Of a stretch of DNA of 35,206 bases, positions 5,840 through 24,900 are shown one piece after another (the first letter of the stretch is position 1; each line of letters starts with the position of its first letter). The notes below the pieces were generated by a model that made no database searches, was not told where the DNA came from, and saw only the letters and a program-made list of their open reading frames with translations. Source of the stretch: a virus; IMG/VR virus record IMGVR_UViG_3300048442_000357, positions 1 to 35,206 of that record. One strand, 5' to 3'. The translations under genes and the position numbers were made by a program.

Positions 5840-8800
5840 ATGCCACAGAAGACAAACCTTAATGTAAATCCTTATTACGAGGACTTCGACGCGAGCAAGA
5901 ATTTCTATAAGATTCTTTTCCGTCCTGGGTATTCTATCCAGACTAGAGAATTAACACAAATACAATCTATTCTACAGAATCAGGTTGAAAGTTTTGGTAA
6001 GTATGCTTTCAAACAAGGAGACCTAGTTGTCCCTGGGGAAGTGGGACTTAACACCAAACTAGATTATGTGAAGTTGTCTTCTGTATCAGAAGTTGCTGTT
6101 GAAGAAGATGGCAATATCGTATACAAAAAATATGATATCAGTCAACTAATTGGCAGACAATTGCGAGGATTAAATTCTGGAGTGATTTCTACTGTTTTAG
6201 AAACAAAGTTAGCAACAGAAACTACTGCTGACACTGTTTATGTAAATTATTTGAATAGTGGTAATTCTAACAACGAATCAAAGTTTCGTCAAGGAGAAAC
6301 TTTAGAAGTTGTTGATGGTATCAATACTCCATTATTAGTTGTTGGAACTGACGGTAGTGTACTTCCTACTAGTATTCAACTTACAAATCCAGATACTGGA
6401 GACGTAACTTCGATTGAAAGTCCAGCAATGGGATTTGCTTCTGCTGTAGAAGTAGAAGAAGGAATATATTTTGTAAATGGATATTTTGTAAGATGCAACA
6501 AAGAAATTCTAGTAATTGATGATTACTATGATAGTCCTTCTTCAAAAGTAGGATTTAAAATCCAAGAAGAAATTATCACTCCAGAAGAAGATGCCAGTCT
6601 TTATGACAATTCTATTGGATCTTCCAATTACACTGCTCCAGGAGCACATAGATTAAAAATTTCATTGAAATTAGTTAAGTTTGAATTCAATCAAACTACA
6701 GATAAAAATTTCATTCAGTTGCTTACCACACTAAGAGGTGCAGTACAGAGAAAGGTATCACCAACTAATTATAGTTTGATTGAGCAAACTCTTGCACGTA
6801 GAACGTTTGACGAAAGTGGAGACTATGTTGTTGGCAACTTTGATATTGATGTCAGAGAGTATGCACAAAAAAATAAAAATGGCGGACTGTATAAAGCAGA
6901 TGCGTTTGGACTTTACAATGGTCTAACTGAAGGAGAAGCATCAAGAAAGATGTTAGCTAGTGTCAGCACAGGCAAAGCATACATCAAAGGATACGAAATT
7001 GTCAATAAAGAGACTAAGTATCTAGAAATCAATAAGGCGAGAGCAAGTCTTACTAGTGATAATATTAGATTAAAAACTAAATCCCTCCCAACTTTAAATA
7101 TCACTAACGTATATGGTAGTGTTCCTCTTAACAAAGAAGGAGCAGATCTTACTGCGTATCCATACATTAACTTATATTCTACATTCAATGATGGATCTGT
7201 AGGATTAGGAAATTCTGAACTTCCTACTGATCACAGACAAACAACAGATAGAAGAGGACAAGTTTTTGGTTCAGATGATGCCACAAAGACTATTGTTGTT
7301 GAAGTAACTAACACAACACAACCTCTCTCAAGTATCACAGATGCAAACTTTGATACTTTATTTGGAGAAATTCATTTCATTAAAACCAGAAATGATGCAG
7401 GTACTGCAACCTCCACTTCAACAGTAAAAGGAATCGCTTTTGCAAAAGTCAACAAACCATTAATCAATGCAAATGATTCTGTTAAATTTTTGGAATTGAC
7501 AATTCTTGGCAAGAAAGATGATTTAGATTTATTGTTTGTAGAGTTTGATTTAGGAGATTCAAATTATCAAAGAAAAATTTTCCTTACTAGTGCAGATGCA
7601 TCTACAGATGCTAACGAAATAGGTTTCATTGTAGATTACAGTGAAACAATTACACCTGTTATTGGTAGAGCAAAACCAAATAATTTCGCTCTCAAGAAAA
7701 AAGGATCTGGATTTAATAGCGACTCTGACATTATTTTATCGCAAGGTCGTCAAGCTGATGGATCTGCAACTTACAATGCTACTTTTGGATTGTCTTATTT
7801 TGATCCAGAATTCTTTACTAAAATTTTATTAGATACTGTCCCTACACAAGGAGCATTTGGAATTGGCAAATACATATTTGGTTTAAAATCTGGAGCATAT
7901 GGAGTTGTTGAAGGTAGTCCTTCCGGAGTATATTCCGTAGGAAAACTGTTGTTCATAAAAACTCTATCTGGTAGATTTCAATCCGGAGAATCCATCAAGG
8001 ATGAAGGTGGAAATGTAGTTAAAATTGCAAAGGATAATACAGTATCTCATTTTATTGTAACTAATCCTGGTCTTGGATATGCAGAAAATTCAAACATTGT
8101 AATCAATGGTGTTGAATATGACAATTCTGTTGTTGATCTGGCAAGATTGAACAGCGGTGCTTTTTATAGAGCAGAGATTAAAAATAAGTCTGCTTTATCT
8201 ACAGAATATGCACAACCACCAGCAGTAACTGTAAAGCAACCTGATGGTTCTGCGACACCAGCTCAAGGTGCAGTTATTTTAGCAGTTCTAACTAGAAATG
8301 CAATAACAACATATACTCCGCAAAATGTAAAATCAGTTTCTGCCAAGTATGGATCTGCTGGAGAAAATGTATTCACTGCAGATGTTGTAGTTGATGATGC
8401 AGAATTTGCAGAAATTAAATCTATTACCGATTTTACTTTCTTTGGAGATAAAGGATATAACTTTATTGAATCTACTAGTTTTAATGCAGATGCTAGTAAT
8501 GTGCTTCAACAGGGCGACATCATTCAATTCTCTGATACGGATAATAATCTAGTACGTTCTACTATACAGTATGCAACGATAAAACAAGGAGCATTCAAGA
8601 CCAGAATCTATCTAGATACAATGCTTCCTGGTGATGTTGTTAATACTAGCATTGTACGTTTGCGTCCTAGAGTTGGAAATGCAAATCAAGGAACTCTGAT
8701 TTATCCAACCGGAAGTAATCAAATTAAACAGATTTCTTCAACACCAGAAGAAACTAAAATTAAATATTTTTTCCGTAGAGATTTTGTAACTACTGCGGCT

Positions 8801-11800
8801 ACTTCCGGTGGTGTAATTACATTTGCTGCACAATTGCCATTTGGAACACAAAGATTCGCTGCTTTTACAGAAGAAAATTACATCATTACTGTTCTAGATC
8901 CAGGTGATTCTCCTAATGTACATACAGGAGATATTGTTTATATCGATAAAGATGCAGTAGAAATTAGTTCATCTACTGATACCAGTAGTGGACTTATTGC
9001 CGGAAGCATTAGTCTGAAATTGCCAACAACATATTTTGGAACAATTCCATCAAATGGAACTTATCCAAAGTTAAAACTGACTGCCACATTAGAAGTAGAG
9101 AATGCAAAACCAAGATTAAAAACTTCTGTAGAAAATAGAAGAATTGTAATTACTTCCAGTGGTGATAGAGTAATTCCATTTAGAGGTATTAATTACGACA
9201 CTGAAGTTGTTGAAACACTTTCATATTCTGATGCTTATAAACTTAGATATGTTTATGAAGGTAGTGCTACTCAACCACCTCAAGCAGATTCTGCAGGAAG
9301 TTTAATTTCTGGTTCTGATGTTACAGATAGATTCACATTCGATAATGGTCAAAGAGACACTGTTTATGATGTTTCTAGATTAGTTTTAAAACCAGGATAT
9401 GAACAGACTACTGGACAACTTCTAATTGCTTTCGATTACTTTGAGCATTCTGCTGGAGATTTTTGTACCGTCGATAGTTATATTCACGAAGCGGGAGTAA
9501 CTGAAGATGAAATCCCATCGTTTAATTCATCTGTTTATGGTATTATTAATCTTAAAAATATTCTAGATTTTAGACCTAAAGTAGATACTACCGCATCTAT
9601 TGCTGGTTTCCAAGATACTGCATCTTTAGCATCATCAATTGGTCCATTTGCTGGTGCTGGTGCCATTATTTCTTCTAGTCCTGCATCAGATACGAATTTA
9701 GAGTATACATTATCGTTCAGTCAAATTCAATACCTAGACAGAATCGACGGTGTATTTCTTAACAAGAATGGTAAATTTATTATTAAAGAAGGCAATTCCT
9801 CACTCAATCCATCAAAACCAGATCCTGTTGATGATGCGATTCCTTTATTCTATGCATATATTCCTGCATTCACACAAAATAGTAAAGATGTAAGAATTAC
9901 TCCTGTTGATAATCGTCGTTATACAATGCGTGATATCGGCAAACTAGAAAAACGTATTGAGAGACTTGAATACTATACCACGCTTAGTGTTCTAGAACAA
10001 CAGGCATTGAATATGCAAGTTAAAGATGAGATTGGATTTGATAGATTTAAGTCTGGTTTCTTAGTAGACAATTTTGAATCACACAGAACAGGAAATCTAA
10101 CTTCATTAGATTATCAGTGTTCTATTGATTCTCAGCAATCAGTCTTACGTCCACAATCAAAAGAAGATTCTTTTATACTTAAAGAAGTAAATACTAGAGA
10201 AGATCAAAGAGTTGTTTCTGGATACAAAAAATCCGGAGATATAGTTACTCTGCCATATTCCAATTTAGAATTTATTGGTAATAATTTTGCATCAAAAACA
10301 CTAAATCCAAATCCATTTGTTGTTCTTCAATATGTTGGAGATTCTGTTTTATCACCAAGCATTGATCAATGGTATGATACCACAGAAGAACCACTAGTTG
10401 TCGATACTAATACTGATCTATACAAAATTTTCTTATCTAAAGAAAATGTAAAAGAAAGTTTTTCTAGTTTGTATAATTCTTTTGTAATTAACTGGGTTGG
10501 TTCATCACCATCTTTCTCTTCGATTAATTCTCTTGGTAGTATTAACAGTCAAGATTCACAGTCAAAAGTAAAACTAGCGTCCACTGCTAGTTCTTCAAAC
10601 ATCAGTCCGAAAAATAATGATGTTGCGAAAGGAGTTCAAACTAAGACTATAAGAGGAAATTCTGTATCTTCTGCTTTGCAGTTCTTTGCTAGAAGTATTC
10701 CAGTTAAGTTTGTTGTTAGAAGACTGAAACCAAATACTACTATTTCTGTCTTTTTGGAAGGTAGGAATATTAGTCGTTGGGTAAATCCAGATCTCAGATT
10801 TACTGGGATCGCTGGTAATTCTCCATCTGCTTTTAATGGACCAGTAACTACAGATGATGATGGAAATGCTAGTGGTATTATTGTTATTCCTGCTGGTCTT
10901 CCACCAGAAGAAAATACAACTTGGACTGGAGATGTAGATACCTTATCATATGATTCTTCTGGAGAAGAAGTAAAAATTGCAGCAGGTATCAAAACATTTA
11001 GATTTACTTCTAGTTCTACAGATGAAGAGAAGTCCACTGTAGCTACCTATGCAGAAGTTAAATATTATGCAACTGGTATTTTGCCAGAAAATCCAGGAAC
11101 AATTGTTTCAACGAAACCATCTTTCTTTAAAGCAAATGAAGGTGTTCAATTCATAGATAGCAATACCGATAATCCTGTAAGACCAAATCCACTTGCTCAG
11201 ACATTTAAAGTTGAAAACTATGAGGGAGGTATATTTACAACTGGTCTTGATCTATACTTTAATAAAAAAAGTAATAAAATTCCAGTTAAAGTATATTTGA
11301 CAAATGTAGACTCAGATAAACCAGGAAAAAATATTATTCCTGGCACAGAAAAAGTTATATCCCCATTTACTTTCCTTAAAATTTTTACTAACGGAAATGT
11401 TTACTTGACTCAGGGAGAATCAATTACTGGTTCTACTTCTGCTGCAAGTGGTCCTCTTGCCAAAATTATTGATAAAAATGGCGTTGACCTGGTGCCTTCC
11501 TCTTCAGGAAGATATCTACTGACAAATGAACAAGTTTACACCATGGTTCTAGATAACCATAATGGTCGTTCTTTCAATCAAAATGAAAGTTTGATTATAC
11601 CATCAGTAATCTTATCAAATAATACCCAAGGAACAAATTCGGTATTGACTATTGCAAAAGATAGTGGAAAAGTTTCTGCTGTTAAAATTCTAAACCCTGG
11701 ATTAAATTATGATAGTGCCATCATTTCAATTGAGAGTCCACAACTTCCAGGAGGATCAGTTGCAACTGCACGAGTAGAAGTTTCTGGTGGTAAAATTTAT

Positions 11801-13960
11801 AACACAGAAATTTCATTGACTGGTTTTGGATACACAGAACCACCATCAGTAGTCGTCAGAGGCGTTGGAAATGGCGCTGGAGGATGTGTTATTGAAACTG
11901 ACATAGAGATTGATACCCCTGCCGTTAGAATGGGCGTAGCAATTGATTCCGAGGGTCTCACAAACTCTACTACACCCACACATTTCTCTTTCGATCATCC
12001 TGTTTATTTACAAAATGATACTGAATATGCTCTTGCTGTTGAAACAGATTCGATAGATTATGAACTATGGGTATCAAGACTTGGCGAAACAGATATTGCC
12101 ACAAGCACAGTTATCACCACACAACCCTCGCTTGGTTCTGTTTACAGATCTCAGAACACTGAGAATTGGACGGAAGATAATTTTGAAGATATCAAATTTA
12201 AGATGTATAGAGCAGAGTTTGATATTACAAGAACTGCAGAGTTAGTTCTGACGAATGAAGATTTGGGATATGAACTTCTCGAAAAAAATCCATTCCAAAC
12301 CAGTGCTACAGCAAACACAAATGCAACTTCGTTATTGTTTAGAAACAATAACAATATTGTACGTGTTAATCACAGAGATCATGGATTTGAAACTCTTGGA
12401 GATTCTTATGTTTTCTATAGAACAGCACTAGAAACCGGTGGTATAACATCTGATATTTTAAACAACACATTATTCCAGATTTCTAATAGTGGAGTTGATA
12501 CGTATGATATCACATCATCTATTTCTGCTTCTGGAAATATTATAGGTGGGGGAGATAAAGTTTATGCTTCTTATAACAGGAAATACGAAACTTTATATCC
12601 ACAAATGCAATATCTAACTTTTACTGGAACTAAGTTAGAATCTACGGTAAAAACTACGAATGTCATTGCAGTAGATGCTTCCAAAATTAATTATGATTCT
12701 TATGATCAGTCTGATTATGAAAAAACTTTCTTAAATGAACCTCATTACTTTACTAATCAAAAATTTGTTTCTTCGAGTATTAATGAAATATTAAATGATT
12801 TAACAAATTCTCTATCATATAAGTTAGAACTATCTTCTACAGTATCACATCTTTCACCTGTTGTGGATCTCTCAACCTCCAGTGTGAAGACATCTACTAA
12901 CAGAATAGAAAAAGCATATGGACAGGAAGATCGTTATGGAAGAAGAGATCAAGTTATTGAATTTTATCCAATCTACTCGTTTACTGTTTCTAACATTACT
13001 GGAGTTACTATCCAAAATGATCAAGCAATTGAAGGATACAACTCTAAAGCAGTTGGTAAGATTGCAAAAGTTAGTGGAAATACAATTTGGGTAAAACTAA
13101 AAACTTCACAGTTCTTCCAGAAAGGAGAAAGAGTTACTTTAGGAAACCAACCAACACTAATTGAAACTGTCAATAGTGTAGATGTTCCAAGAGCAATTGT
13201 TGATACCAATCCAATTCAAGATTTCCAGGAAATTCCTGATGCTGCCACAATTACAGCAAGAAATCCAGCTACACCAGTAGAAACTTATGACAATATTATT
13301 ACTGGTAAAGCAGTAATTTGGAATGATAGAACACAAGAATTGACATTGAGGACTGACACTCAACCTATTGCTGGAGATTTTAATGGAAGAATCCAAGACA
13401 ATGATGCATATGCTAGAAAAGCACAATTAGTTGACCAAGTTTCTGATATCTTCCGTGTGGGTGATATTGTATCATATCCAAATCAACCTGCTGATGAAGT
13501 TCTTTTCTTGGAAGTTGGCACTATGACATATAGCAATGGTTCTGAATTCGTTTCAGAACTTACTTCTAGAAATAGTTCTTCTATTGCCAAATATATTACA
13601 AAGGAAGTTGCTATTTCAAATCCAGCTACCGCAATTGATGTTCATTTAACTTTGAATATTAGAGATCTTTCTGATATTGAAGTTTTATACAAATTCAAAA
13701 AAGCATCCAGTAATGAAAATTTTGAGGATATTGATTGGGAATACTTCAATGGCACCGGTCAACCAAATTCTCTAGAAATTGCTACCCCTGAAAATAGCAT
13801 TTCGAGTGTAATTGAGAAACAAGAATCTTATCAGGATATTACTTACAGCGTAGCAGATCTTCCAGAGTTCTCGTCATTTGCTGTTAAGATTGTCATGAAA
13901 GGAAATGATCCTGCATATGTTCCGAAGATTCAAGATATTCGTGCAGTTGCTGCATTCTAA
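5840..13960 (+). CDS. Giant DUF4815-family tail/baseplate structural protein
   Basis: This 2706-residue protein opens with the DUF4815 signature (NLNVNPYYEDFDASKNFYKI, FRPGYSIQTRELTQIQ, QVESFGKYAFKQGD), found in large tail proteins of marine phages. Around residues 1360-1410 a charged, coiled-coil-like stretch (YTMRDIGKLEKRIERLEYYT) is followed by DRFKSGFLVDNF, typical of the family. Later come RSIPVKFVVRRLKPNT, NPLAQTFKVENYEGG (about residue 1787) and FDHPVYLQNDTEYALAVETD (about 2046), then SLGSVYRSQN and DIKFKMYRAEF. GxGY beta repeats lie near residues 736 and 1944-2010. It probably links baseplate and fibres; T4 gp10 is a positional comparison only. It heads a late unit from the 5796 promoter, with nine bases to the next gene. 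No frameshift was seen. Confidence 0.87.
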   Translation: MPQKTNLNVNPYYEDFDASKNFYKILFRPGYSIQTRELTQIQSILQNQVESFGKYAFKQGDLVVPGEVGLNTKLDYVKLSSVSEVAVEEDGNIVYKKYDISQLIGRQLRGLNSGVISTVLETKLATETTADTVYVNYLNSGNSNNESKFRQGETLEVVDGINTPLLVVGTDGSVLPTSIQLTNPDTGDVTSIESPAMGFASAVEVEEGIYFVNGYFVRCNKEILVIDDYYDSPSSKVGFKIQEEIITPEEDASLYDNSIGSSNYTAPGAHRLKISLKLVKFEFNQTTDKNFIQLLTTLRGAVQRKVSPTNYSLIEQTLARRTFDESGDYVVGNFDIDVREYAQKNKNGGLYKADAFGLYNGLTEGEASRKMLASVSTGKAYIKGYEIVNKETKYLEINKARASLTSDNIRLKTKSLPTLNITNVYGSVPLNKEGADLTAYPYINLYSTFNDGSVGLGNSELPTDHRQTTDRRGQVFGSDDATKTIVVEVTNTTQPLSSITDANFDTLFGEIHFIKTRNDAGTATSTSTVKGIAFAKVNKPLINANDSVKFLELTILGKKDDLDLLFVEFDLGDSNYQRKIFLTSADASTDANEIGFIVDYSETITPVIGRAKPNNFALKKKGSGFNSDSDIILSQGRQADGSATYNATFGLSYFDPEFFTKILLDTVPTQGAFGIGKYIFGLKSGAYGVVEGSPSGVYSVGKLLFIKTLSGRFQSGESIKDEGGNVVKIAKDNTVSHFIVTNPGLGYAENSNIVINGVEYDNSVVDLARLNSGAFYRAEIKNKSALSTEYAQPPAVTVKQPDGSATPAQGAVILAVLTRNAITTYTPQNVKSVSAKYGSAGENVFTADVVVDDAEFAEIKSITDFTFFGDKGYNFIESTSFNADASNVLQQGDIIQFSDTDNNLVRSTIQYATIKQGAFKTRIYLDTMLPGDVVNTSIVRLRPRVGNANQGTLIYPTGSNQIKQISSTPEETKIKYFFRRDFVTTAATSGGVITFAAQLPFGTQRFAAFTEENYIITVLDPGDSPNVHTGDIVYIDKDAVEISSSTDTSSGLIAGSISLKLPTTYFGTIPSNGTYPKLKLTATLEVENAKPRLKTSVENRRIVITSSGDRVIPFRGINYDTEVVETLSYSDAYKLRYVYEGSATQPPQADSAGSLISGSDVTDRFTFDNGQRDTVYDVSRLVLKPGYEQTTGQLLIAFDYFEHSAGDFCTVDSYIHEAGVTEDEIPSFNSSVYGIINLKNILDFRPKVDTTASIAGFQDTASLASSIGPFAGAGAIISSSPASDTNLEYTLSFSQIQYLDRIDGVFLNKNGKFIIKEGNSSLNPSKPDPVDDAIPLFYAYIPAFTQNSKDVRITPVDNRRYTMRDIGKLEKRIERLEYYTTLSVLEQQALNMQVKDEIGFDRFKSGFLVDNFESHRTGNLTSLDYQCSIDSQQSVLRPQSKEDSFILKEVNTREDQRVVSGYKKSGDIVTLPYSNLEFIGNNFASKTLNPNPFVVLQYVGDSVLSPSIDQWYDTTEEPLVVDTNTDLYKIFLSKENVKESFSSLYNSFVINWVGSSPSFSSINSLGSINSQDSQSKVKLASTASSSNISPKNNDVAKGVQTKTIRGNSVSSALQFFARSIPVKFVVRRLKPNTTISVFLEGRNISRWVNPDLRFTGIAGNSPSAFNGPVTTDDDGNASGIIVIPAGLPPEENTTWTGDVDTLSYDSSGEEVKIAAGIKTFRFTSSSTDEEKSTVATYAEVKYYATGILPENPGTIVSTKPSFFKANEGVQFIDSNTDNPVRPNPLAQTFKVENYEGGIFTTGLDLYFNKKSNKIPVKVYLTNVDSDKPGKNIIPGTEKVISPFTFLKIFTNGNVYLTQGESITGSTSAASGPLAKIIDKNGVDLVPSSSGRYLLTNEQVYTMVLDNHNGRSFNQNESLIIPSVILSNNTQGTNSVLTIAKDSGKVSAVKILNPGLNYDSAIISIESPQLPGGSVATARVEVSGGKIYNTEISLTGFGYTEPPSVVVRGVGNGAGGCVIETDIEIDTPAVRMGVAIDSEGLTNSTTPTHFSFDHPVYLQNDTEYALAVETDSIDYELWVSRLGETDIATSTVITTQPSLGSVYRSQNTENWTEDNFEDIKFKMYRAEFDITRTAELVLTNEDLGYELLEKNPFQTSATANTNATSLLFRNNNNIVRVNHRDHGFETLGDSYVFYRTALETGGITSDILNNTLFQISNSGVDTYDITSSISASGNIIGGGDKVYASYNRKYETLYPQMQYLTFTGTKLESTVKTTNVIAVDASKINYDSYDQSDYEKTFLNEPHYFTNQKFVSSSINEILNDLTNSLSYKLELSSTVSHLSPVVDLSTSSVKTSTNRIEKAYGQEDRYGRRDQVIEFYPIYSFTVSNITGVTIQNDQAIEGYNSKAVGKIAKVSGNTIWVKLKTSQFFQKGERVTLGNQPTLIETVNSVDVPRAIVDTNPIQDFQEIPDAATITARNPATPVETYDNIITGKAVIWNDRTQELTLRTDTQPIAGDFNGRIQDNDAYARKAQLVDQVSDIFRVGDIVSYPNQPADEVLFLEVGTMTYSNGSEFVSELTSRNSSSIAKYITKEVAISNPATAIDVHLTLNIRDLSDIEVLYKFKKASSNENFEDIDWEYFNGTGQPNSLEIATPENSISSVIEKQESYQDITYSVADLPEFSSFAVKIVMKGNDPAYVPKIQDIRAVAAF

Positions 13961-13969
13961 CTTCCGCGT

Positions 13970-14176
13970 ATGGGTTATATTAAAGTTAAAGGGCATGATG
14001 GTCTTGTCAGAGACGAGACCTCAGGTGCCATAGTCAATCACAGCGATTCTGCTATCCAGGCAAGACGCAAGCAGCGACAGTTAAATTCCGCGTTGGACGA
14101 CATAAATATGTTGAAGGATGAAGTCTCTGAAATCAAATCCCTACTTAGAGAGTTAATAAAAAATGCCAGCAATTAA
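13970..14176 (+). CDS. Small coiled-coil protein of the tail region
   Basis: A 68-residue protein starting MGYIKVKGHDGLVRDETSGA, an N-terminus I recognise from short uncharacterised proteins beside tail genes in marine T4-like phages. Residues 1-25 look like a small folded head (KVKGHDGLVRD, GAIVN). Residues 35-66 have heptad-like spacing (LNSALDDINMLKDEVSEIKS, then LLRELI), which suggests a coiled coil. The start is nine bases after the DUF4815 stop and the 3' end overlaps the next gene by 14 bases, so it is probably translationally coupled to both. It may be a minor tail component or an assembly partner of the fibre; neither role is shown by the sequence. Confidence 0.75.
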   Translation: MGYIKVKGHDGLVRDETSGAIVNHSDSAIQARRKQRQLNSALDDINMLKDEVSEIKSLLRELIKNASN

Positions 14177-17100
14177 TGTCGCTAGAACTGATACCTTTGA
14201 AAAACAAAGGATCAAAATTAATCAAATTGGTGATCAAATTTTTAACGTTACTGCTGGCGGTAGTGATCTCGCTACAGGCAACTTGAGGTTAGGTGATGGC
14301 ACTATAGGTTTGCCATCATTAGCTTTTATTAATGACAGTTCTTTGGGTTTGTTTAAATCTGATATTAAAACTGTGGGATTTGTATCAGGAGATAAAAAAA
14401 TCTTTGAATACAATAATTCTAGTATTAGTATTTTTTCTTTCTTAGATTTTAAGAAAAAATCATTAATAACTTCTGGATTATCGATATCTAGTGTTGGTTC
14501 AAACTATGATAGAGGTTCGTATACAGACATTTTACTAACTGGTGGTTCTGGTACTGCGGCAACTGTAGATGTTGATATTACTGCTCATGCAGGAGATATT
14601 AACGCATATAGTGTAGATTATATTGGTGGAAGTTTTCAAAATGTTAATCTCTCTGGTGGCAATGGAACTGGGGCAACTGTAAATTTTAGTGTATCCTCAA
14701 TTAGTGGTTCTGTGACAAATGCAGGAACTCTGTATACACAAGGAATTTATAATGATGTTGCTTTATTAGGAGGAAATGGATCTAATGCAACTGGCACTAT
14801 CACTATTGGTGCGATTGGAAATGTTGTCGGGTTAACATTTACAAACCAAGGTAGCGGTTATCAAATTGGAGATGTTCTATCAGTTAATAATGCTGATGTT
14901 GGAGGTACTGGATCTGGATTTGAATATACTGTTGATGCAGAATCTGGATCAATTATAAATTTACAATGGACAGATAGAGGAAATAATTATCAACTAGGAG
15001 ATGTTTTAACACTACCAGGACAAATTACTGGACAATCCGCTGCGTTAAAATCATCAATTTCCAATGTATCTGTTACTTTAAGTACTGTAGATGCAACTGT
15101 ATCTGTTCCGAGCACGGCAGGAATAGTTGTAGGAATGTTTATCACTGTTGAAGATGGGTCAACAGGAACTTTATTCCCCGGAACAGAAGTTCAATCAGTA
15201 GACAGTGTTAATAGTACAATTACACTAGACCAAAATCCAACTGGAGATGGTTCGGCAAATTTAACAATTTCCTCTCAAGGAACTTTGGAGGAAACAACAA
15301 TTAGTACTGGTCTTGCAATTTCAGATGGTGATATTGTAACCACATCAGCTGGTCCTGGAACTCTCACATCAAACACAACTGTTGTATCATATAATTCATC
15401 CAACGGTCTTCTTACATTAAATCAATCGCCGTCATTAGCAGGATCTGCAACACTAACATTTACTCCAGCATTTGGTTATAACACAAATACTCCATGGACT
15501 TATACAATTAATGCTCTCGGAATTACCGATTCTGTATCTGTAAATAATCCAGGATTTGGATATATTAAAGGAGACGTATTATCAGTATCACCTTTTGATT
15601 TAGTACAACCAACATCACTAGCAGTAACTGTTAATCCTGTAACAGAATTAGTGTTTTCAGGAACAATTTCTGCTGGATCTATTTTAGCATCAGATACATT
15701 TGAATTCAACCCAGGTGGACTACCACAACCACTTACAATTAGTATCTTCAAAGTAAATGAAAGTGGTGGTAATATTACATCAGTGTTCATAGAACAAGGA
15801 TCATACGTAAATGGAGATGTATTAACATTAGCAAGAACATCTGTTGACTACACTGTAGATACTTCTGTTAATAGTAATAAATTTTTTATTGATGGAAATC
15901 TAACTCCAGATTTAACATTATACTCAGGAAACACATACATCTTTGACTATTCTACTGTAACTGGACATCCATTTATTTTTAGTCAATTTCCAGATGGACC
16001 TAATACACCAAGTTTAATATCTACTAGTGCTACTCTATCAACATCATCTAAGACAATTACATTAGCAGATACTTCCGGTATTCTTGCTGGAATGAGTGTA
16101 GAATCTGGAGTAAGTGATGCTGGTCAAGTAGCGAGTAATACTTTTGTAGATACTGTTGTTGATGCTACCACTTTAACAATAACAGAGTTTCCTGCTAGTA
16201 ATGGATCTTCTACATTATCATTCGCGGGTGTCCCATATACAGATGGTGTGGTAAGTGGTTCCAATACAAAAACTATAAAAATATCAGATTTAACTCCAAA
16301 TTTATATTACTATTGTGGTATTCACCCAAATATGGGAGGTGAAGATGGGGAAGAAGGTTTACTTACGATTGACACAAACAATCCAAAAGTATTTGGAAGC
16401 GGTCTTTCTATTAATGTAAATCAAATTACAGAGGTAGAAAACATTAAATTTGATATTGTAGAAGGAAGAAATACTCTAACTGACATTATTTCCACAACTG
16501 CCACTGTAGGAGATTTAACAGTTTCTAATGTTATTAATGCAGCAACAATAACATCAACCGCAAGTGTAAACACTCCAGTTGTTTCTAGCAATAATCAACT
16601 ATTACTAACTGGTACTGATATTAAATCACAATCAAATTTTTTAGTAGGTAACTTTTTTACTGTGGCATCTTCTGATGGAGATGTATCTACATCAGGATCA
16701 GTAAAAGCATTAGGGGGATTTAATTCTAACGATCAAATTATTGTTGAAAATAATCAAATTAAAACATTATCTGGTTATGATCTTGTATTGCAACCATACT
16801 CAACTAGATGTATATCAATTGATTCTTCAACTTCACTAAACATTCCTTCTGGAACTACTCTAGAAAGACCTCCAGCTGGCATTCGTGCCAATGGTTCTAT
16901 TAGATTCAATACCGATTCTGGTCAGTATGAAGGATACAATGATTCAACACAATCATGGTCATCATTAGGTGGAGTTCGTGATATTGATGGTAATACTTAT
17001 ATTCTAGCAGAGCTTACTACAGGGGCAAATGATAATACTTTGTATTTTTATAATGATAGTATCAATACATTAAAATTAACTAAAAATCAGTTACGTTTTG

Positions 17101-18374
17101 AAGGTGTAAAAGAACTTGCATCACCTAGACTTGGGATTCCGGCATATACAGAATGGGCGGCAAATACTCCAATAACAACTGGTCAGTATATTAAGTACAG
17201 AAATAATTTATATGAAGTAACTTCTGATGGAACTACAGCAACATCTGGTAGTGAACCTGTGCATATTACTGGTACTCAAAATAATGGAACAGCACAGTTA
17301 ACTTGGAGTCAAATTGCAGTTTCTCCAATTATCTTTAATGAAGCAGAAGAAGTTAGAGTTGGTCCCAATAAAGACTGTCCTCTAATTGTTAACTCTGAAA
17401 TTAAAATTAGTTCTAATGAAATTTCTTCTCTTATTGAAGATTTAATTTTTAAACCAAATCCAGGAAAACAAACTATTGTTGATTCCAATACTCATTTTAG
17501 AATTCCTGCAGGTGATAATAATGCAAAAAATCTTGCGCCAGCTGGTCCTGGTTCTATTAGATTCAATACAGAAATTTTACAATTTGAAGGATATAGTGGT
17601 ACTAACTGGTCTTCCCTTGGTGGTGTAAGAGATGTCGATGGAAATACATACATTATTCCTGAAACTGCTCCTGCAGCAAACGAGAATATTTTATATTTTT
17701 ATAATAATAATGTAAACACTTTACAACTTTCTGTAAGTTCATTAGATTTTACAAACATTGATACTATCACAACCGGAGGAAATAGTTTAGAACTTACTGC
17801 GGAAATTGTAACATTAAATGCTGGTGATACTACTGTTGATAACACTAGTGCCGACCGTACATTTATTAGTAGCACAAAACAATATCTTGATTTTGGTTTG
17901 TCTTCTGGATTAAATGTAGATCCTATTTTAAGATTGGATGATCAAGGTGATGTTTTCTTAAACACAACTTTTGGAAGTGGATCTTTTAACGGTGTTAAAG
18001 TTCTTGACGGAGCACTAAAAGAATTTGAATTAGCAGATTATAAAATTAGCACAGCAACATTTGCGTTAATTAAAGGTGGAGTAGAATCTTCCGCTGTTAT
18101 TTTATATCCAAGTGGAAGTAGTAAAGGATGTAAGGTATCAGTAGTTTCTAAATCTGCATCTGGTAAAAGATCTATGACAGAATATTCAGTTATAGATAAT
18201 GGCACAGACATCTTCCATAATGAATATGCATCTTTGAATACCTCTGCTGATCAATACACATCTGCTTTTGATTTTACTGCTTCAACAGAACCCAGAATAA
18301 CTTTGACTTTATCGGATGATCATGACACTGGTGATATTGTTAACTTCACCGTACTAATACAGGAAATTAAGTAA
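14163..18374 (+). CDS. Tail fibre-like protein with cupredoxin-like domain
   Basis: This 1403-residue protein begins MPAINVARTDTFEKQRIKIN, then LRLGDGTIGLPSLAF, the usual N-terminal attachment region of cyanophage fibres. Residues about 105-300 hold GxGY-type beta repeats. About 302-369 and 374-434 are two copies of a 'GM.V....G......T.V.......T.L' repeat. A cupredoxin-like domain spans about 570-736, with H602, C718, H721 and M724, and holds a third copy of that repeat. About 990-1055 is an aromatic module (EWAANTPITTGQYIKYRNNL) shared with the 3126-residue fibre. Two copies of a SIRFNT...SSLGGVRD.DGNTYI block follow (about 910 and 1130). The C-terminus is beta-rich with no S74 chaperone motif seen. 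It overlaps the upstream gene by 14 bases; the next ATG is one base past its stop. Confidence 0.83.
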   Translation: MPAINVARTDTFEKQRIKINQIGDQIFNVTAGGSDLATGNLRLGDGTIGLPSLAFINDSSLGLFKSDIKTVGFVSGDKKIFEYNNSSISIFSFLDFKKKSLITSGLSISSVGSNYDRGSYTDILLTGGSGTAATVDVDITAHAGDINAYSVDYIGGSFQNVNLSGGNGTGATVNFSVSSISGSVTNAGTLYTQGIYNDVALLGGNGSNATGTITIGAIGNVVGLTFTNQGSGYQIGDVLSVNNADVGGTGSGFEYTVDAESGSIINLQWTDRGNNYQLGDVLTLPGQITGQSAALKSSISNVSVTLSTVDATVSVPSTAGIVVGMFITVEDGSTGTLFPGTEVQSVDSVNSTITLDQNPTGDGSANLTISSQGTLEETTISTGLAISDGDIVTTSAGPGTLTSNTTVVSYNSSNGLLTLNQSPSLAGSATLTFTPAFGYNTNTPWTYTINALGITDSVSVNNPGFGYIKGDVLSVSPFDLVQPTSLAVTVNPVTELVFSGTISAGSILASDTFEFNPGGLPQPLTISIFKVNESGGNITSVFIEQGSYVNGDVLTLARTSVDYTVDTSVNSNKFFIDGNLTPDLTLYSGNTYIFDYSTVTGHPFIFSQFPDGPNTPSLISTSATLSTSSKTITLADTSGILAGMSVESGVSDAGQVASNTFVDTVVDATTLTITEFPASNGSSTLSFAGVPYTDGVVSGSNTKTIKISDLTPNLYYYCGIHPNMGGEDGEEGLLTIDTNNPKVFGSGLSINVNQITEVENIKFDIVEGRNTLTDIISTTATVGDLTVSNVINAATITSTASVNTPVVSSNNQLLLTGTDIKSQSNFLVGNFFTVASSDGDVSTSGSVKALGGFNSNDQIIVENNQIKTLSGYDLVLQPYSTRCISIDSSTSLNIPSGTTLERPPAGIRANGSIRFNTDSGQYEGYNDSTQSWSSLGGVRDIDGNTYILAELTTGANDNTLYFYNDSINTLKLTKNQLRFEGVKELASPRLGIPAYTEWAANTPITTGQYIKYRNNLYEVTSDGTTATSGSEPVHITGTQNNGTAQLTWSQIAVSPIIFNEAEEVRVGPNKDCPLIVNSEIKISSNEISSLIEDLIFKPNPGKQTIVDSNTHFRIPAGDNNAKNLAPAGPGSIRFNTEILQFEGYSGTNWSSLGGVRDVDGNTYIIPETAPAANENILYFYNNNVNTLQLSVSSLDFTNIDTITTGGNSLELTAEIVTLNAGDTTVDNTSADRTFISSTKQYLDFGLSSGLNVDPILRLDDQGDVFLNTTFGSGSFNGVKVLDGALKEFELADYKISTATFALIKGGVESSAVILYPSGSSKGCKVSVVSKSASGKRSMTEYSVIDNGTDIFHNEYASLNTSADQYTSAFDFTASTEPRITLTLSDDHDTGDIVNFTVLIQEIK
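15066..15270 (+). repeat. Beta repeat copy 1 in the 1403-residue fibre
   Basis: About 68 residues: SVTLSTVDATVSVPSTAGIV, GMFITVEDG, an extended strand with PGTEVQSVDS, then TITLDQNPTGDGSANLTIS. It matches two later copies in the order 'short strand - GM.V - turn - T.V - T.L - G...L.F/I'. Confidence 0.65.
15283..15465 (+). repeat. Beta repeat copy 2 in the 1403-residue fibre
   Basis: About 61 residues directly after copy 1: TTISTGLAISDGDIVTTSAG, TSNTTVVSYNSSNGLLTLNQ, SPSLAGSATLTF. It follows the same pattern as copies 1 and 3, but GDIV replaces the GM.V element. Confidence 0.6.
15870..16370 (+). other. Cupredoxin-like domain with type-1 copper ligand set
   Basis: Within the 1403-residue fibre, residues 570-736. 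The N-terminal part reads FFIDGNLTPDLTLYSGNTYI, then STVTGHPFIFSQFPDG; the C-terminal part reads NLYYYCGIHPNMGG. Candidate copper ligands are H602 (GHPF), C718, H721 and M724. C-x2-H-x2-M is the spacing of amicyanin (plastocyanin has C-x2-H-x4-M). About 70 residues of a separate beta repeat interrupt the domain between the first His and the Cys loop. Copper binding is inferred from ligand pattern only. Confidence 0.68.
16021..16230 (+). repeat. Beta repeat copy 3, nested inside the cupredoxin-like domain
   Basis: About 70 residues: ATLSTSSKTITLADTSGILA, GMSVESGVSD, NTFVDTVVDATTLTITEFPA, NGSSTLSF. Closest to copy 1 (TLST..AT..., AGI..GM.V). It falls between copper-ligand candidates H602 and C718 of the fibre. 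Confidence 0.62.
16892..16912 (+). repeat. 21-nt exact direct repeat, copy 1
   Basis: Identical over 21 bases to 17549-17569. It encodes the start of the SIRFNT block, which is followed in both copies by EGY, SSLGGVRD and DGNTYI. It marks an internal duplication in the 1403-residue fibre gene. Confidence 0.8.
17549..17569 (+). repeat. 21-nt exact direct repeat, copy 2
   Basis: Second exact copy, 657 bases (219 codons) from the first and in the same frame. Protein similarity extends well beyond the exact DNA identity, to LYFYN and NTL.L in both copies. Confidence 0.8.
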
Positions 18375-18375
18375 A

Positions 18376-18876
18376 ATGACAACAAATTTAAAAGAATTTG
18401 AATCTCTTGGAGGATTCTCTATTGGTGATGTTTCTATTGTTGATAAGGATAAAAATGCGAAAGATTTTAATACCTTAGGAATCAGAAATTCTTTTCATCC
18501 AGATAGCAATGTAGTAAGATATATTTTAAGAGGTCTCAATACTTCTACGCTTGAGTTAGATGATGTTGGAACTAACATCACACTTTCAAATAACACAATG
18601 AATTTTATTACAGGACATTATATTGCGGTAAATCCATCTGGAGTTGTGTATTCAGGAAAATTAGAAAGTTCTGTATATACTGCAGGTGATGGTGCTACCA
18701 CAGTCCTTTCTACTATGGAAACAGTTATTAAACATGACGTTCCTGTTGGTGAATCTTGGACTATAGAACCATTCACTGCAACCAATCGTTTTAGTTATTC
18801 AACCATAAGATCAGGAACGGTACAAACTATTAAATGGGCGGTATCTACAGAAGTTATAAGTATTGATTGGGCTTAG
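18376..18876 (+). CDS. Uncharacterised virion-associated protein
   Basis: A 166-residue protein, MTTNLKEFESLGGFSIGDVS, that I do not recognise by family name. It is predicted to be soluble and beta-rich, with no signal peptide, no membrane segment and no cysteine. Notable stretches are DFNTLGIRNSFHPDSNVVRY, a YTAGDGATTVLSTMETVIKH segment, and an aromatic C-terminus (TIKWAVSTEVISIDWA). The ATG is one base past the stop of the 1403-residue fibre gene, with AGGA about 11 bases upstream, so the two are probably co-translated. A late promoter follows immediately, making it the last gene of the unit that began at 5796. It may be a fibre partner or hinge protein; this rests on position only. Confidence 0.72.
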   Translation: MTTNLKEFESLGGFSIGDVSIVDKDKNAKDFNTLGIRNSFHPDSNVVRYILRGLNTSTLELDDVGTNITLSNNTMNFITGHYIAVNPSGVVYSGKLESSVYTAGDGATTVLSTMETVIKHDVPVGESWTIEPFTATNRFSYSTIRSGTVQTIKWAVSTEVISIDWA

Positions 18877-18920: not shown

Positions 18921-21900
18921 ATGAGTTTTCATATTAATTCCGATAAAGAAAAAATTAGGGGCGTAAACCCTAAACTCATCGGTGATAATGAAGCTACAAT
19001 TAGGGTAGGCACTGGGGCAAATGAACAAGAAATCATGCGCCTACAGAAAGATCCTGTTAGTGGTCTTCCTCGTGTAGGTATCAACAGAACAGGTCAAAGA
19101 GTCAATAATGTTAATATTGATCAGGGAGGGTCTGGATATAATCAAGTTCCATTAGTTGTAATTAGTTCTCCACCATCTGGTGGAGTTCAAGCTCAAGCGT
19201 CTGCTTCCGTTTTTAATGGTAGAGTTGTTTCAGTTTCTGTTAATGATCCCGGTAATGGATATACATCTGCACCATCTGTTAGTTTTACTGGAGGAAATGG
19301 TTCTGGTGCTGCAGCAACTGCTTTTCTTGATACTGTCGAGTTTGAACTTGACATCAATGGCGCTATCAGAACATCAACATCTATCATTTCTGATACAGCA
19401 AGAATTTTAAATCTGGATATTGAGAACTTTATTACTCCAGATTTGAACCTGAGGGCACCAAACCTCAAAACATATATGAATGGCACTGGTACGCCATGGG
19501 CTGCCAATGTTATTGTACAAAAAGATCAATATAGATATTCTGTTGCTAACGTATATCAAGCAGTTAGTACAGGAACTACAGGATCTTTAGCACCAGAACA
19601 TAAGGATGGTATTGAAGCAAATGGAACTGTAAACTTTAAACATATTGGTTTTAGGGTAACCACGCCAACAGAATTTCAGTATTTAGAAACCGGAGAAGCA
19701 GGAGCATTCCCGCGTTCTATTACTCCTCTACTTGGTGATAGATCAGACAAAATTGCCACCACAGAATACGTCCTCAACCTAGCAACGAATGACGTTGGTG
19801 GTCGTATCTATGTTTCACAACAGATTGGTTCTGACCTAAACGATGGTCGTTCTGCTGTGAACCCTGTCAGAACAATTAAGAAGGCAGCACAAGAGGCATG
19901 GAAAACTCCTGGTGTCAAAGAAACACTAATTGTTTCTGGTGGTAATTACGTAGAAGATAACCCAATCTCACTACCACCTGATTGTTCTGTTGTTGGTGAT
20001 AACCTTCGTTTGGTAATTATCAGACCTGGTAATGTTGGTAAGCACATCTTCAAGTTTGGTGATAAAAATTATGTTACTGGCGTAACTTATAGAGATAAAG
20101 TTGACTCCAATGGAGATGCCACTGGAACATGGGACTTTGCTATGGTCTTTGATGACAAGCAAAGAATCATTGTTGACAATGAAGTCAATGGAGATTTTGG
20201 TATTGAGTTCCCAGTTGGACATCAAATTTTTGGACCAGCTAGATTTCGTATCTCTTTCCAAAATAACACAGGATTAGCATTACTACAATCAGGAGTTCAA
20301 CTTTTAGGTTTGAACACTGGTGCTAGAGCGAATAGTTCTGGTGTATCTTTTACCTCATCAACTGGAGCAAATGCGTTTGTTGCAGGCACAATTGATGTAA
20401 CATTAGCATCTGGTTCTTTTATTGAAGGAGACCAGTATAGTTATATTACATCAGCTGCGGTTGGTGGCGCACTCTCACAAACAATTAGTGGAACTTCTGG
20501 AGAAAATAGTTTAAGGTTTACTACAGATCCATCAACAGATCTTCCAGTAAACAATGTTGTTTTCTTAGACGATACTGATAACTCATCATTTAGTTCAGGT
20601 TTTTACCAAGTTTCGGTTGTTAATAATGGTAATGCACCCACGTATTGGGATGTTACTTTTGTTCCTATTTTAGGTGCAGTGGGATGGGACAGCACTTTAT
20701 CTGATACAACAATCACGATTAACTCTGCATCACCAACATCAAATACTCTTGACAGCACAAATCTTAAGTCGATTAGAGCTGAAGGTGAGGTTGTTTCTTA
20801 TGACGAAGATATTATATCAACTCTGCCAATCACTAGGTTAGATTTCTCTCTACAGGGAGATCCTAGTATTGCTACTGGTGGTTTCCAATCTGATATTTAT
20901 GGAGACGCAGAAGATATTGGCGGTGTTGTTGTTTATACTAGTGCTCTTGTAGGTAGAACTAACTTCCACGAATTTAAAGAAGGTCAAGAAATTATTCTTG
21001 AAAACCTCCCAACTTCTGGACCAGACTTATCTTTCTTAAATGGAAAGCAAAGAATTTACAAAGTCTTAGAAGATGCTGATGGTCGCGCACGACGTTTTGT
21101 TATTCCAAAAAAAGTCCCCTCACTGACAACTGCCAACTTTGCCGTAAGTGAATTTGCTGTAGTAAAATCGTATTCTAAGTCGGTCACACTTTCATTACTA
21201 AACTCACCAAACAAATTTGCTGTAGCAACTCCTGCTGAAAGAAGATATCAGGATGCTTGTCAGTTAATTAGAAATAATAGAGACTACATCGCAGAAGAAG
21301 TAGTTGGTATTATTAACGATCAATTCAAATCAGATTACTATTCTGTATACAATTTAGATACAGGTAATAATACATTTGACATTTATCTAGGTCCACTGGA
21401 TCATGCAAACACATATGTCAGTGGTGGTACAGTAACGTTTGGGGGAACTTCTTATGCCATTAGTGGATTTGTATATGATACTGCAGTAACTGGTGTAGCT
21501 ACTATTACAACAACTGCAGTTGCCATTGCTGCATTGTCTGAAGATGATACTGTTCAGTTAGCAGATATTTTGATCTCTTGCACTGCCGGTGAGAAAATTT
21601 ATCCATCATATAGTTCACCAACAAACGCAAATACTGGGTCTAACGGTGATGAGCAATGTAAGCAAGACGTTATTCATTTCCTAAATGCTCTTGTAAGAGA
21701 CCTTGAGTTTGGATCTAACCACAACATTATCGAAGCTGCTTCCAAGTATATTGTAGGTGGAAAGATTGCTTTTATTGAAGATGAAATTATTCAAAATGTA
21801 CGTGCAATTGAATATGCTAGAGAGTTAGCAATTTATGCAATGTGTAATTGGAGGATTAAGAATAGAACAATTTCGGATCCTTTATACACAACAAAGTATG

Positions 21901-24900
21901 CTACATCACTAAGGTATACTGATACAACTATTGTTAATACAACAGCAGGAACTCCTGCTTGTGATGATGTAAGATCTGCTATTGATACACTAGCATACCT
22001 TTGGGCCGATGTTATTACTAATGATGCATCTGGAACATATCTTGATGCTGCTTATCTAATTGCCAAGAATGCTGATCTAATTGCAGACCAAGCACTTATT
22101 GATACCGAGGTAGCATATCCAACTTTAGGTCTTTCAAATATTCGCCAAAGAAAATGTCTTAGAGACATTAGACTTGTAATTGAAGGTCTTGTAAGAGACT
22201 TAGTTCTTGGAGGAAACCATGGTATTGTTTCTGCTGCAGAATCGTATTTTAGTGGAACTGTTCTTTCTGGAATTCCAGAAGCGCAATTGGATGAAACCAG
22301 ATATGCATTCCAGCAAGTAAAAGATCTTGCTATTGCGGCAATGCGTAATTGGACAGATGGAGATGTTTTAGCTACGACACCATCCACTGCTACGTATGCT
22401 CCAAACACTGGAGTATTTACAGTAACATTCCCAAATCCAGCAACACCTCCAGTAGCAAATCAAGATAGAATTGCTTTTGCGGAAGGAGCAATTACATTCA
22501 GTTGCGCCCATGATGGTGGTGGTAATGATGCAAGTCCATATAGAACAGACGCAAATTTCGGACAAAGTTTCTTAATTACCAATGTTTCAAATAATGGTGG
22601 AAATACTATTGTTACTGCCAACGTTGGTGTAGGTGGAAGCAATACGGACGCACACACGTTTGCAAGTGCATTAGCAAATGGAACTAAAATTATCTATGCT
22701 CCATTCGCAACAACTTCACTTATTCCAAAATTTGAAGATTGGAGTATTCTAGAAGATAGTGCAAACCCATCATGTGCTGCTATTGCTTCTGCTATCACAA
22801 CAGCACTAGCAACCTTTGATAGTATTTTAGAGTATGCTTCTGATGCTGTTAATGGTGCTGCTCCTGGATCTATTACTCAAACTTTCGGAACTTTATATGA
22901 AACAAATAGTCTTCTAACTTATCCTACTAGTTTCATCAATGACTTCAATAATAATAGGATGGCAGTTCGTGGTATATATGATGATTTGCCAATTATCGAA
23001 GCATCTCCATATACACAGAATGCTTCTGTTATCTCCTTTAGAGGTGGCGGTGGTGCAGAAATTGATGGTGATAAGGTCAAGCAACCTAACTGCCCCTTCC
23101 CTGGTCTAGAACCAGACGGAACAGCATCGTTCCCCAATCAGGGTAAGTCGATGGTTGCTGCGGCATTCACGATTGTCTCCTTTGGTGGCACAGGATATAA
23201 AGTTATCAACGATGGTTATACCCAGTTAGTTTCTGTCTTCGTTATTTTCTGCCAAGATGGTGTTCTTTGTGAGACTGGTGGTTATGCTTCTATCACCAAC
23301 TCTGCTACTAACTTTGGAACCTTTGCTCTAAGAGGAACAGGTTTCCGTAAAGATCCATATGAATTTGACGCTGGCACAGTTAATGTTGTTTCTCAAACAC
23401 CAACTGGTAGAACTATCCTTACTGTTGGCAATATCGGAAGAGAGCCACTAGAACATTACATTGTTAAAATTGATGGTTATAGAAATGCAGATCCAGATAA
23501 AGAATTCTTTATTGAATCTGTAAGTGGAGTTACTGTTGGTCCTCCTTTTACAGCAACAATTACTATTGACGATGGTATTGGAAATGGTCTAACTCTAATT
23601 AGAGAGTCTGATGGTGCAACTGTTTCTGGTCTAACAGCACTACAGCAAGCATTGACACCATCTAATTCAGCAAATGCTACCATTAGATTACACAGACCAT
23701 CTATCGTTAACTCTTCCTCACATACCTGGGAATTTGCAGGTTCTGGAACTAACTACTTAGCTCTCCCTGAGAACGGTGGAACTAAAGTTGAGGCAAACGA
23801 GCAGGTATCTGAAAACTATGGTCGTGTATATGTCTCAGGTACTGATGAACTAGGAGACTTTAAAGTTGGTACGTTTGCGAGAATTGAGAACAGAACTGGT
23901 AATATCACCTTTACTGGCACGGTTACAATTTCAGAAGTTGAATTCTTGAAACTGAAAGGTGGCGACGTTGTTGTTACCGGATTTGATAACTCGAATACTC
24001 TTGGTGGTGCTAATGCCACTGACTCCAAACTACCTACACAGAAGGCAGTTAAAGATTATATCACAAACTCTCTTGGTCCATATATTAACAAACCATATTC
24101 TACGAACGCTGTTCCTAGAGCACTGGTTGAACTTACAGATTCTGGTAAGATCTCTCTCGATCAGATCCCGGCATTAAGACCATTTAGTATTTTTACTGTC
24201 GTAAATGAAGCAGAAAGACTTTCTATCGACGGAGCACTTGCTGGAGATATTGCTATTCAAGATAATAGTGATATTGTAGATGGATCACCACAATCATTCA
24301 TTTTGAATAATGATTTAACCAGTCTGTTCCTTGGATTTGCTGTTGATGCATCATTATCATTTACTATCGGTAATGTATTTACTGGTTCTCCTTCTACTGG
24401 CAGAATTCAATCTACCGAGTATAGAGAAGGCGTATTATATAAAATCAATATTACAGATGGTGGTTCTGGATATACTGTTGCTCCAACGGTAACAATTTCT
24501 GGCGGTAATCCATCAGCAGGTTCTGTTCCTGCTACAGCAACTTGTACTATTGCTAATGGTGAAGTTGTTACTATTACTGTTACAGAAAACGCAAGTTATG
24601 TTGGCGGTTTTGGATACACAACACAACCAGTAGTTACTATTGCGGCACCTCCTGGAGCTGGCACACAAGCAACTGCTACTCCACTAATTGAAAGTAGATT
24701 GTATGGCAATATTGTCAATGCTATCAAGATGCTTGATACTGATACATTTGATGATAACAGTACTCCTGCAAATTCAGTTAATATTCTTAGGGTTGTCAAT
24801 ACATCTTCATCTCTTATTAGCAACTGGGTATCACTAAGTAGTGAAGCAGTTGGTGTTGGATCTCTTACTGGTCCTGGTGTTATTTCCACAACTTTATTGG

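What the first reader, a model, noticed from the sequence alone, without database searches (positions are those of the whole stretch)
15870..16370. Virion fibre with an amicyanin-like type-1 copper site
H602, C718, H721 and M724 reproduce the His-Cys-His-Met set, with C-x2-H-x2-M spacing as in amicyanin and hydrophobic strands on both sides. Cupredoxin-like domains with this look recur in marine phage structural proteins, but copper binding on a virion is, to my knowledge, not well described. Possible roles are stabilising the fibre, binding copper proteins on the host surface, or redox sensing.
Basis: partly seen in the sequence, partly recalled or inferred. Interest (0 to 1): 0.72.

Follow-up and report, generated by a model that had tools for sequence, protein, structure and literature searches.

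The report
Copper-site domain in phage structural protein
A large structural protein of a marine T4-like phage carries a plastocyanin-type (cupredoxin) domain whose four putative copper ligands are conserved as a set across relatives, so these virus particles probably carry a metal, most likely copper, although nobody has yet measured it.

Summary
In detail: H602, C718, H721 and M724 lie in the 1403-aa ORF 14163-18374. A confident AlphaFold2 model (pLDDT 95) shows a cupredoxin fold interrupted by a ~72-residue β-domain like a phage decoration protein. The ligands line up with plastocyanin's in a related module. Across 162 distinct relatives the far-apart His and the Cys-His loop stay or go together: all 110 with the loop keep the first His, 38 of 52 without it have lost it, and 12 independent pairs give 10 same-way, 0 opposite (p~0.002). 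Only the axial position varies (Met, Glu, Val here; Gln in domain A), as in known type-1 copper proteins. Relatives whose site is altered or lost nearly always have a second, intact cupredoxin ~600 residues upstream. 136 of 140 complete proteins keep at least one Cys-His site. So a metal site is under selection, usually one short-loop site per chain. No Pfam or NCBIfam model recognises the module, yet it recurs in many marine phage tail proteins and some bacterial lipoprotein-like proteins. Copper itself, blue colour, virion location in this phage and function remain unmeasured. Best guess: a metal-dependent contact module on the tail apparatus.

The parts
14163..18374 (+). 1403-aa virion structural protein (phrog_6005 family) that holds the cupredoxin domain
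   Evidence: phrog_6005, E=0, annotated virion structural protein; same place and order in cyanophages
15849..16406 (+). cupredoxin domain B with its insert (protein residues 563-748)
   Evidence: AlphaFold2 pLDDT 95.4, pTM 0.87; cupredoxins of known structure aligned over model 1..175-181
15849..16010 (+). first part of the cupredoxin sandwich (residues 563-616), ends just after the strand that follows H602
   Evidence: strands; hhalign match of this part to the sister module, 98.6% probability
16011..16226 (+). inserted beta-domain, about 72 residues (617-688), like a phage decoration protein
   Evidence: 8eci_1 (Arthrobacter phage Bridgette; called 'Decoration protein'): Z 8.4, rmsd 1.7, model 55..126
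16227..16406 (+). second part of the cupredoxin sandwich (residues 689-748) with the Cys-His-Met loop
15966..15968 (+). H602, first equatorial His
   Evidence: kept in 110 of 110 relatives that have the Cys-His loop, 14 of 52 that lack it
16314..16316 (+). C718, Cys ligand
16323..16325 (+). H721, second equatorial His
16332..16334 (+). M724, axial Met (Glu or Val in some relatives' domain B)
5840..13960 (+). neighbour: 2706-aa giant structural-cluster protein (relatives annotated gp7-like / virulence-associated)
   Evidence: phrog_358
18376..18876 (+). neighbour: 166-aa virion structural protein, next in the cluster in relatives too
   Evidence: phrog_5449
18921..28301 (+). neighbour: 3126-aa tail fibre protein
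   Evidence: phrog_5342 tail fiber protein

Best explanation
The region encodes a genuine cupredoxin domain with a type-1-like His-Cys-His-Met metal site, carried by a large virion structural protein of a marine T4-like phage (nearest cultured relatives: Synechococcus phages). SHOWN: sequence, fold prediction, coupled conservation of the ligands, an inserted decoration-like domain, and an inverse relation with a second cupredoxin domain of the same chain. INFERRED: the site binds copper (others such as zinc not excluded); it fills during or after virion assembly. Because the good site can sit in either of two domains some 600 residues apart, while nearly every chain keeps at least one, what matters is probably the metal chemistry per chain rather than local bracing of one domain. 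The most likely use is a metal-dependent contact: the solvent-exposed His edge of a loaded cupredoxin, held on the tail/baseplate apparatus by beta-domains, docks on a host envelope partner (receptor, surface polymer, or copper/electron-transfer protein). The role step is a guess at about 0.35; a functional metal site is put at about 0.8 and copper at about 0.7.
For: Ligands exact. AF2 pLDDT 95.4, matches to copper proteins over the outer domain (rusticyanin Z 8.0, Hyphomicrobium NiR N-terminal domain Z 7.8). Sister module: pLDDT 94.4, all 50 listed entries are copper proteins, best Z 9.2, all four ligands aligned with plastocyanin's (sub-threshold E 0.038). First His kept in 110/110 with the Cys-His loop, 14/52 without; independent pairs 9.9 same: 0 opposite, median p 0.002. 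Axial residue Met/Glu/Val in B and Gln in some copies of A. Domain B short loop versus functional domain A: 46 B-only, 5 both, 82 A-only, 7 neither; independent pairs 0.1 same: 8.8 opposite, median p 0.004; 136 of 140 chains keep at least one Cys-His site. The module recurs in other phage tail proteins and in putative bacterial lipoproteins.
Against: No metal measured; no coordinates, so ligand geometry was not measured. Z of about 8 for domain B alone is within the range of chance-like matches (note). Four complete relatives have no site at all, and 52 of 162 lost it in domain B. The inverse relation with domain A was noticed on the first phage set, and the later test includes those rows; its first run gave median p 0.07, and the reversed test on the larger set spans p 0.001-0.11. 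Nothing tests the contact role directly.
Confidence: 0.66

Rival explanations
1. Local structural metal site: copper or zinc only stiffens this one beta-sandwich of the virion protein; no partner outside the particle.
For: The chain is cysteine-poor, so disulfides are hardly an option; beta-sandwich modules are common in fibres; other phage fibres use bound metal (T4 gp37 iron, as told in PMC11705849).
Against: Domain B persists as a recognisable domain after losing the whole site (52 of 162), so the fold does not need it; a local brace would not be replaced by a site in another domain far away.
Confidence: 0.25
2. Redox or electron-transfer function: the cupredoxin exchanges electrons with host envelope proteins or senses redox state.
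For: Type-1-like ligand set and short loop as in electron carriers; the axial residue varies as in electron carriers tuned to different potentials.
Against: No partner or electron acceptor in the chain was seen; no spectroscopic data; the long-loop Glu form common in domain B would be an unusual electron-transfer site.
Confidence: 0.15
3. Metal decoy or metal piracy: the loaded tail is recognised by a host metal-uptake or copper-handling protein (a copper analogue of the Ferrojan horse idea for iron).
For: Iron version proposed for marine phages and tail fibres (PMC11705849); the module is common in marine viral contigs.
Against: No host receptor identified; the same module sits in several different protein types.
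Confidence: 0.15
4. Vestigial site: the ligands are a leftover of an ancestral copper protein and bind nothing now.
For: The site is lost in about a third of domain B copies and absent altogether in 4 of 140 chains.
Against: First His and the Cys-His loop disappear together on independent branches, 10 versus 0, and losses concentrate where a second site exists; domain A has all four ligands invariant in 48 diverse copies, though those were profile-selected.
Confidence: 0.1

Closest known systems
Plastocyanin / amicyanin (small blue copper proteins, Pfam PF00127)
   Same: Cupredoxin sandwich; His...Cys-x2-His...Met ligands in the same order; sister-module profile aligns H, C, H and M on plastocyanin's; C-x2-H-x2-M spacing as in amicyanin (own knowledge).
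   Different: No match to PF00127 in the window; embedded in a 1403-aa virion protein, not a free periplasmic carrier; ~72-residue domain inserted between the first His strand and the Cys strand.
Rusticyanin and the N-terminal cupredoxin domain of Hyphomicrobium nitrite reductase
   Same: Best structural matches of the cupredoxin part (Z 8.0 and 7.8 for B; NiR Z 9.2 for A).
   Different: Longer Cys-His-Met loop in rusticyanin (own knowledge), different context, sequence identity about 20%.
Cyanophage PetE plastocyanin (auxiliary metabolic gene)
   Same: Cupredoxin encoded by marine T4-like cyanophages (Sullivan 2010, PMC3037559).
   Different: PetE is a separate small photosynthetic protein thought to act in the host; this is a domain of a virion structural protein.
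Phage decoration protein of Arthrobacter phage Bridgette (8eci)
   Same: Fold of the inserted domain (Z 8.4, rmsd 1.7, 66 residues).
   Different: Here it is spliced into a cupredoxin, not a free capsid decoration protein.
Iron-bearing HxH tail fibres (T4 gp37; Ferrojan horse hypothesis)
   Same: Metal carried in a phage tail protein (told in PMC11705849).
   Different: HxH octahedral iron sites in a trimeric fibre, versus a His-Cys-His-Met cupredoxin site within one chain.
Nitrosocyanin (red copper, His2-Cys-Glu; own knowledge)
   Same: The long-loop relatives have His, Cys, His and a Glu at the axial position.
   Different: The loop and the origin of the Glu differ; relation is by ligand set only and was not tested.

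Membership tests
Cupredoxin fold | Greek-key beta-sandwich matching known cupredoxins over the whole domain | tested here: met
   outer part of domain B; sister domain A, Foldseek best E 1.3e-4. For B alone Z about 8 is borderline; the case rests on A and B together with the ligands.
Type-1 copper site | His, Cys, His equatorial ligands in the canonical order and strands | tested here: met
   alignment of the sister module with plastocyanin
Type-1 copper site | Ligands coordinated to copper with trigonal geometry; intense Cys-Cu(II) absorption near 600 nm | not testable with these tools
   no coordinates and no experiment; needs protein
Amicyanin | C-x2-H-x2-M ligand loop | tested here: met
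   (CGIHPNM)
Amicyanin | Sequence membership of the copper-bind family (PF00127) and context with methylamine dehydrogenase genes | tested here: not met
   no PF00127 match in the window; neighbours are phage structural genes. It is not an amicyanin, only amicyanin-like in its loop.
Virion structural protein phrog_6005 | Sequence match and conserved place in the T4-like cyanophage structural cluster | tested here: met
   (E=0)
Virion structural protein phrog_6005 | Presence in purified particles | not testable with these tools
   Proteomics of S-SM1, S-PM2 and Syn9 virions exists (PMC3037559), but the table for this gene was not readable here

The most novel reading that the evidence does not exclude
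Marine phage tails carry an unrecognised family of cupredoxins, with one functional metal centre maintained per chain but movable between domains, and with a second site type (His, C-x5/6-H-x2-Glu, probably a different coordination or metal) arising in domain B, used to engage host envelope metal or electron-transfer proteins: copper-dependent infection.
Probability: 0.2. Interest if true: 0.85.

Novelty: new variant of a known kind. Interest (0 to 1): 0.62.

Why it matters
If copper is confirmed, abundant marine phages would be copper-bearing particles, extending the iron (Ferrojan) idea to a second scarce metal and giving a simple test of metal-dependent adsorption. It also exposes a cupredoxin family that Pfam and NCBIfam do not recognise, spread over many marine phage tail proteins and some putative bacterial surface proteins, and an evolutionary pattern (one site maintained, position interchangeable) that helps to separate 'the metal matters' from 'the fold matters' without an experiment.

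Tried and rejected
Pfam on the whole protein and on the domain: only sub-threshold chance hits; NCBIfam: none for the window protein. phmmer and domain-B profile against PDB sequences: no significant hit, only a plastocyanin (1b3i) at E 0.33, so the cupredoxin assignment rests on fold and on the sister module. Foldseek on the whole domain B gave no match under E 0.001, probably because the insert splits the fold. Alignments A1 and A2 were too diverse for a collection scan. I considered that the ligand pattern is a by-product of sampling with the motif, and therefore sampled by the protein's C-terminus, which knows nothing of the site. I considered domain A copies ending CSVHPLQGG as dead: they keep the C-x2-H pair with Gln at the axial place and were counted as sites (this choice, and counting two C-x2-H-x2-Val loops as short-loop B, was made after the first run of the test). 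Literature: no paper in the open-access library was found that joins cupredoxins with virions or tail fibres; most subscription papers and preprints are not covered.

Full report
WHAT IS THERE. The window is a 35,206-base virus record with the structural gene cluster of a T4-like marine phage; the nearest annotated relatives are Kyanoviridae that infect Synechococcus (best match 48% to Synechococcus phage ACG-2014e over the domain). The finding lies in ORF 14163-18374, 1403 aa, phrog_6005 'virion structural protein'. In cultured relatives the same gene stands in the same order: giant gp7-like/'virulence-associated' gene, a ~68-aa gene (not annotated in every record), this gene, a ~166-aa virion structural gene, and a giant tail-fibre-like gene (window neighbours).

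FOLD. An alignment of residues 563-748 with 65 relatives (A6) gave an AlphaFold2 model of mean pLDDT 95.4, pTM 0.87. Realignment to PDB chains splits it into two: model residues 55-126 match a phage decoration protein (8eci_1, Z 8.4, rmsd 1.7 A over 66 residues), while the remainder (1-54 plus 127-181) matches cupredoxins: rusticyanin (Z 8.0, 90 residues, 2.6 A), the N-terminal domain of the three-domain nitrite reductase of Hyphomicrobium (Z 7.8) and two-domain laccases (Z about 7). So a β-domain is inserted between the strand that follows H602 and the strand that ends in C718. Z of about 8 alone is not proof. The sister domain A, which has no insert, is clearer: pLDDT 94.4, best Z 9.2, every one of the 50 listed entries a copper protein, Foldseek E 1.3e-4 to the same nitrite reductase. 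A profile of domain A aligns His, Cys, His and Met with the copper ligands of plastocyanin, though below significance on its own (E 0.038). Domains A and B are homologous in their first 40 residues (hhalign 98.6%) and share the Y-x-C-x2-H-x2-M-G end.

ARE THE LIGANDS UNDER SELECTION? Relatives were collected with the domain and, to avoid choosing by the motif, with the C-terminal 150 residues of the protein. In 162 distinct family members with a domain B the Cys-His loop is C-x2-H-x2-M in 58, C-x5 or x6-H in 48 (axial place counted as Glu in 38, Met in 6), C-x10-H-x2-M in 2, C-x2-H-x2-V in 2, and lost in 52. The first His, some 110 residues away, is present in 110 of 110 that have the loop but in only 14 of 52 that lack it. 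On a tree of the part of the protein after domain B, 12 independent pairs that differ in the loop gave 9.9 same-way, 0 opposite, median p 0.002. The axial position is the variable ligand: Met, Glu or Val here, and Gln in several domain A copies (CSVHPLQGG), much as type-1 copper proteins vary (own knowledge).

ONE SITE PER CHAIN. Many relatives have a second cupredoxin (domain A, residues ~260-365) upstream. Of 140 N-terminally complete proteins, 46 have a short-loop domain B and no functional A, 82 have A and a long-loop or lost B, 5 have both and 7 neither; 136 keep at least one Cys-His site when long loops are counted. Independent pairs: 0.1 same, 8.8 opposite, median p 0.004. In the two chains whose A is degenerate without Cys-x2-His (L056, L318), B is intact. 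Caveats: the idea came from the first phages and these are in the test; the first run (109 rows) gave median p 0.07; the reversed test on the larger set spans p 0.001 to 0.11; phage genes recombine, so a tree of one part need not fit another. Four related proteins without a recognisable domain B (L164, L171, L173, L174) were looked at: the three printed have a C-x2-H-x2-M cupredoxin motif at about residue 370 and a single Cys in the whole protein.

WIDER FAMILY. One domain A query found 416 relatives in viral contigs, of which 80 were kept. Few of these 80 are in this protein family; the rest sit in other ORFs, among them ~2380-aa proteins and short proteins, several of which match tail-fibre and baseplate PHROGs. 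Thirteen loci in bacterial and archaeal genome assemblies include likely phage contigs and also lipoprotein-like proteins, some with cadherin or collagen repeats (signal peptides read by eye). No Pfam or NCBIfam model recognises the module in any tested protein. Cyanophage-encoded plastocyanin (PetE) is known as a metabolic gene (PMC3037559), but I found no paper on cupredoxins in virions.

HOW IT PROBABLY WORKS. Shown: fold prediction, ligand coupling, insert, inverse relation with domain A. Inferred: copper as the metal, loading at or after assembly, surface exposure. Because domain B survives as a domain without the site, and because a site elsewhere in the chain seems to substitute, I prefer a role of the metal chemistry for the whole chain, such as docking on a host envelope partner, over local bracing (25%), electron transfer (15%), metal decoy (15%) or a dead remnant (10%). 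Docking and decoy overlap, since they differ only in the partner.

VERDICT. Observation confirmed; interpretation partly supported; a cupredoxin in an unusual place with an unusual insert and an informative evolutionary pattern. New variant of a known kind; interest 0.62.

Noticed in passing
L006, L008, L016 and many viral contigs (domain B): A second site type: first His kept, C-x5/6-H-x2-Glu (38 of 48 long-loop forms counted with Glu). The ligand set His-Cys-His-Glu resembles nitrosocyanin's by composition only; it may bind copper differently or another metal.
   Followed up: partly
L177-L256 (domain A query), e.g. L219:3473-4249, L243:3144-4289, L183:2053-9183: The same cupredoxin module without insert recurs in many unrelated marine phage tail-type proteins, nearly always with C-x2-H-x2-MG, yet has no Pfam model.
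   Followed up: partly
L264, L265, L266, L267, L268 (genome contigs): Lipoprotein-like bacterial or archaeal proteins (SAR86 and others) carry the module, some beside cadherin or collagen repeats.
   Followed up: partly
L023:1687-5811: gp7-annotated protein of Synechococcus phage S-CAM22 has a cupredoxin-type loop (CLNHPNM) and a YHYH domain (PF14240, E 9e-16) in one chain.
   Followed up: no
window 33313-34887: Tryptophan-halogenase-like protein (phrog_2928) near the structural genes.
   Followed up: no
window 30064-30840: N-terminus FLTGFPRSGNTLLSSLLNQ looks like a sulfotransferase P-loop (read by eye only).
   Followed up: no
window 15054-15461: Two stretches of the same protein (residues 298-370 and 355-433) weakly resemble the decoration-like insert (about 30% identity), and clearer copies occur in relatives: the insert is probably one of a family of repeated modules in the chain.
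   Followed up: partly
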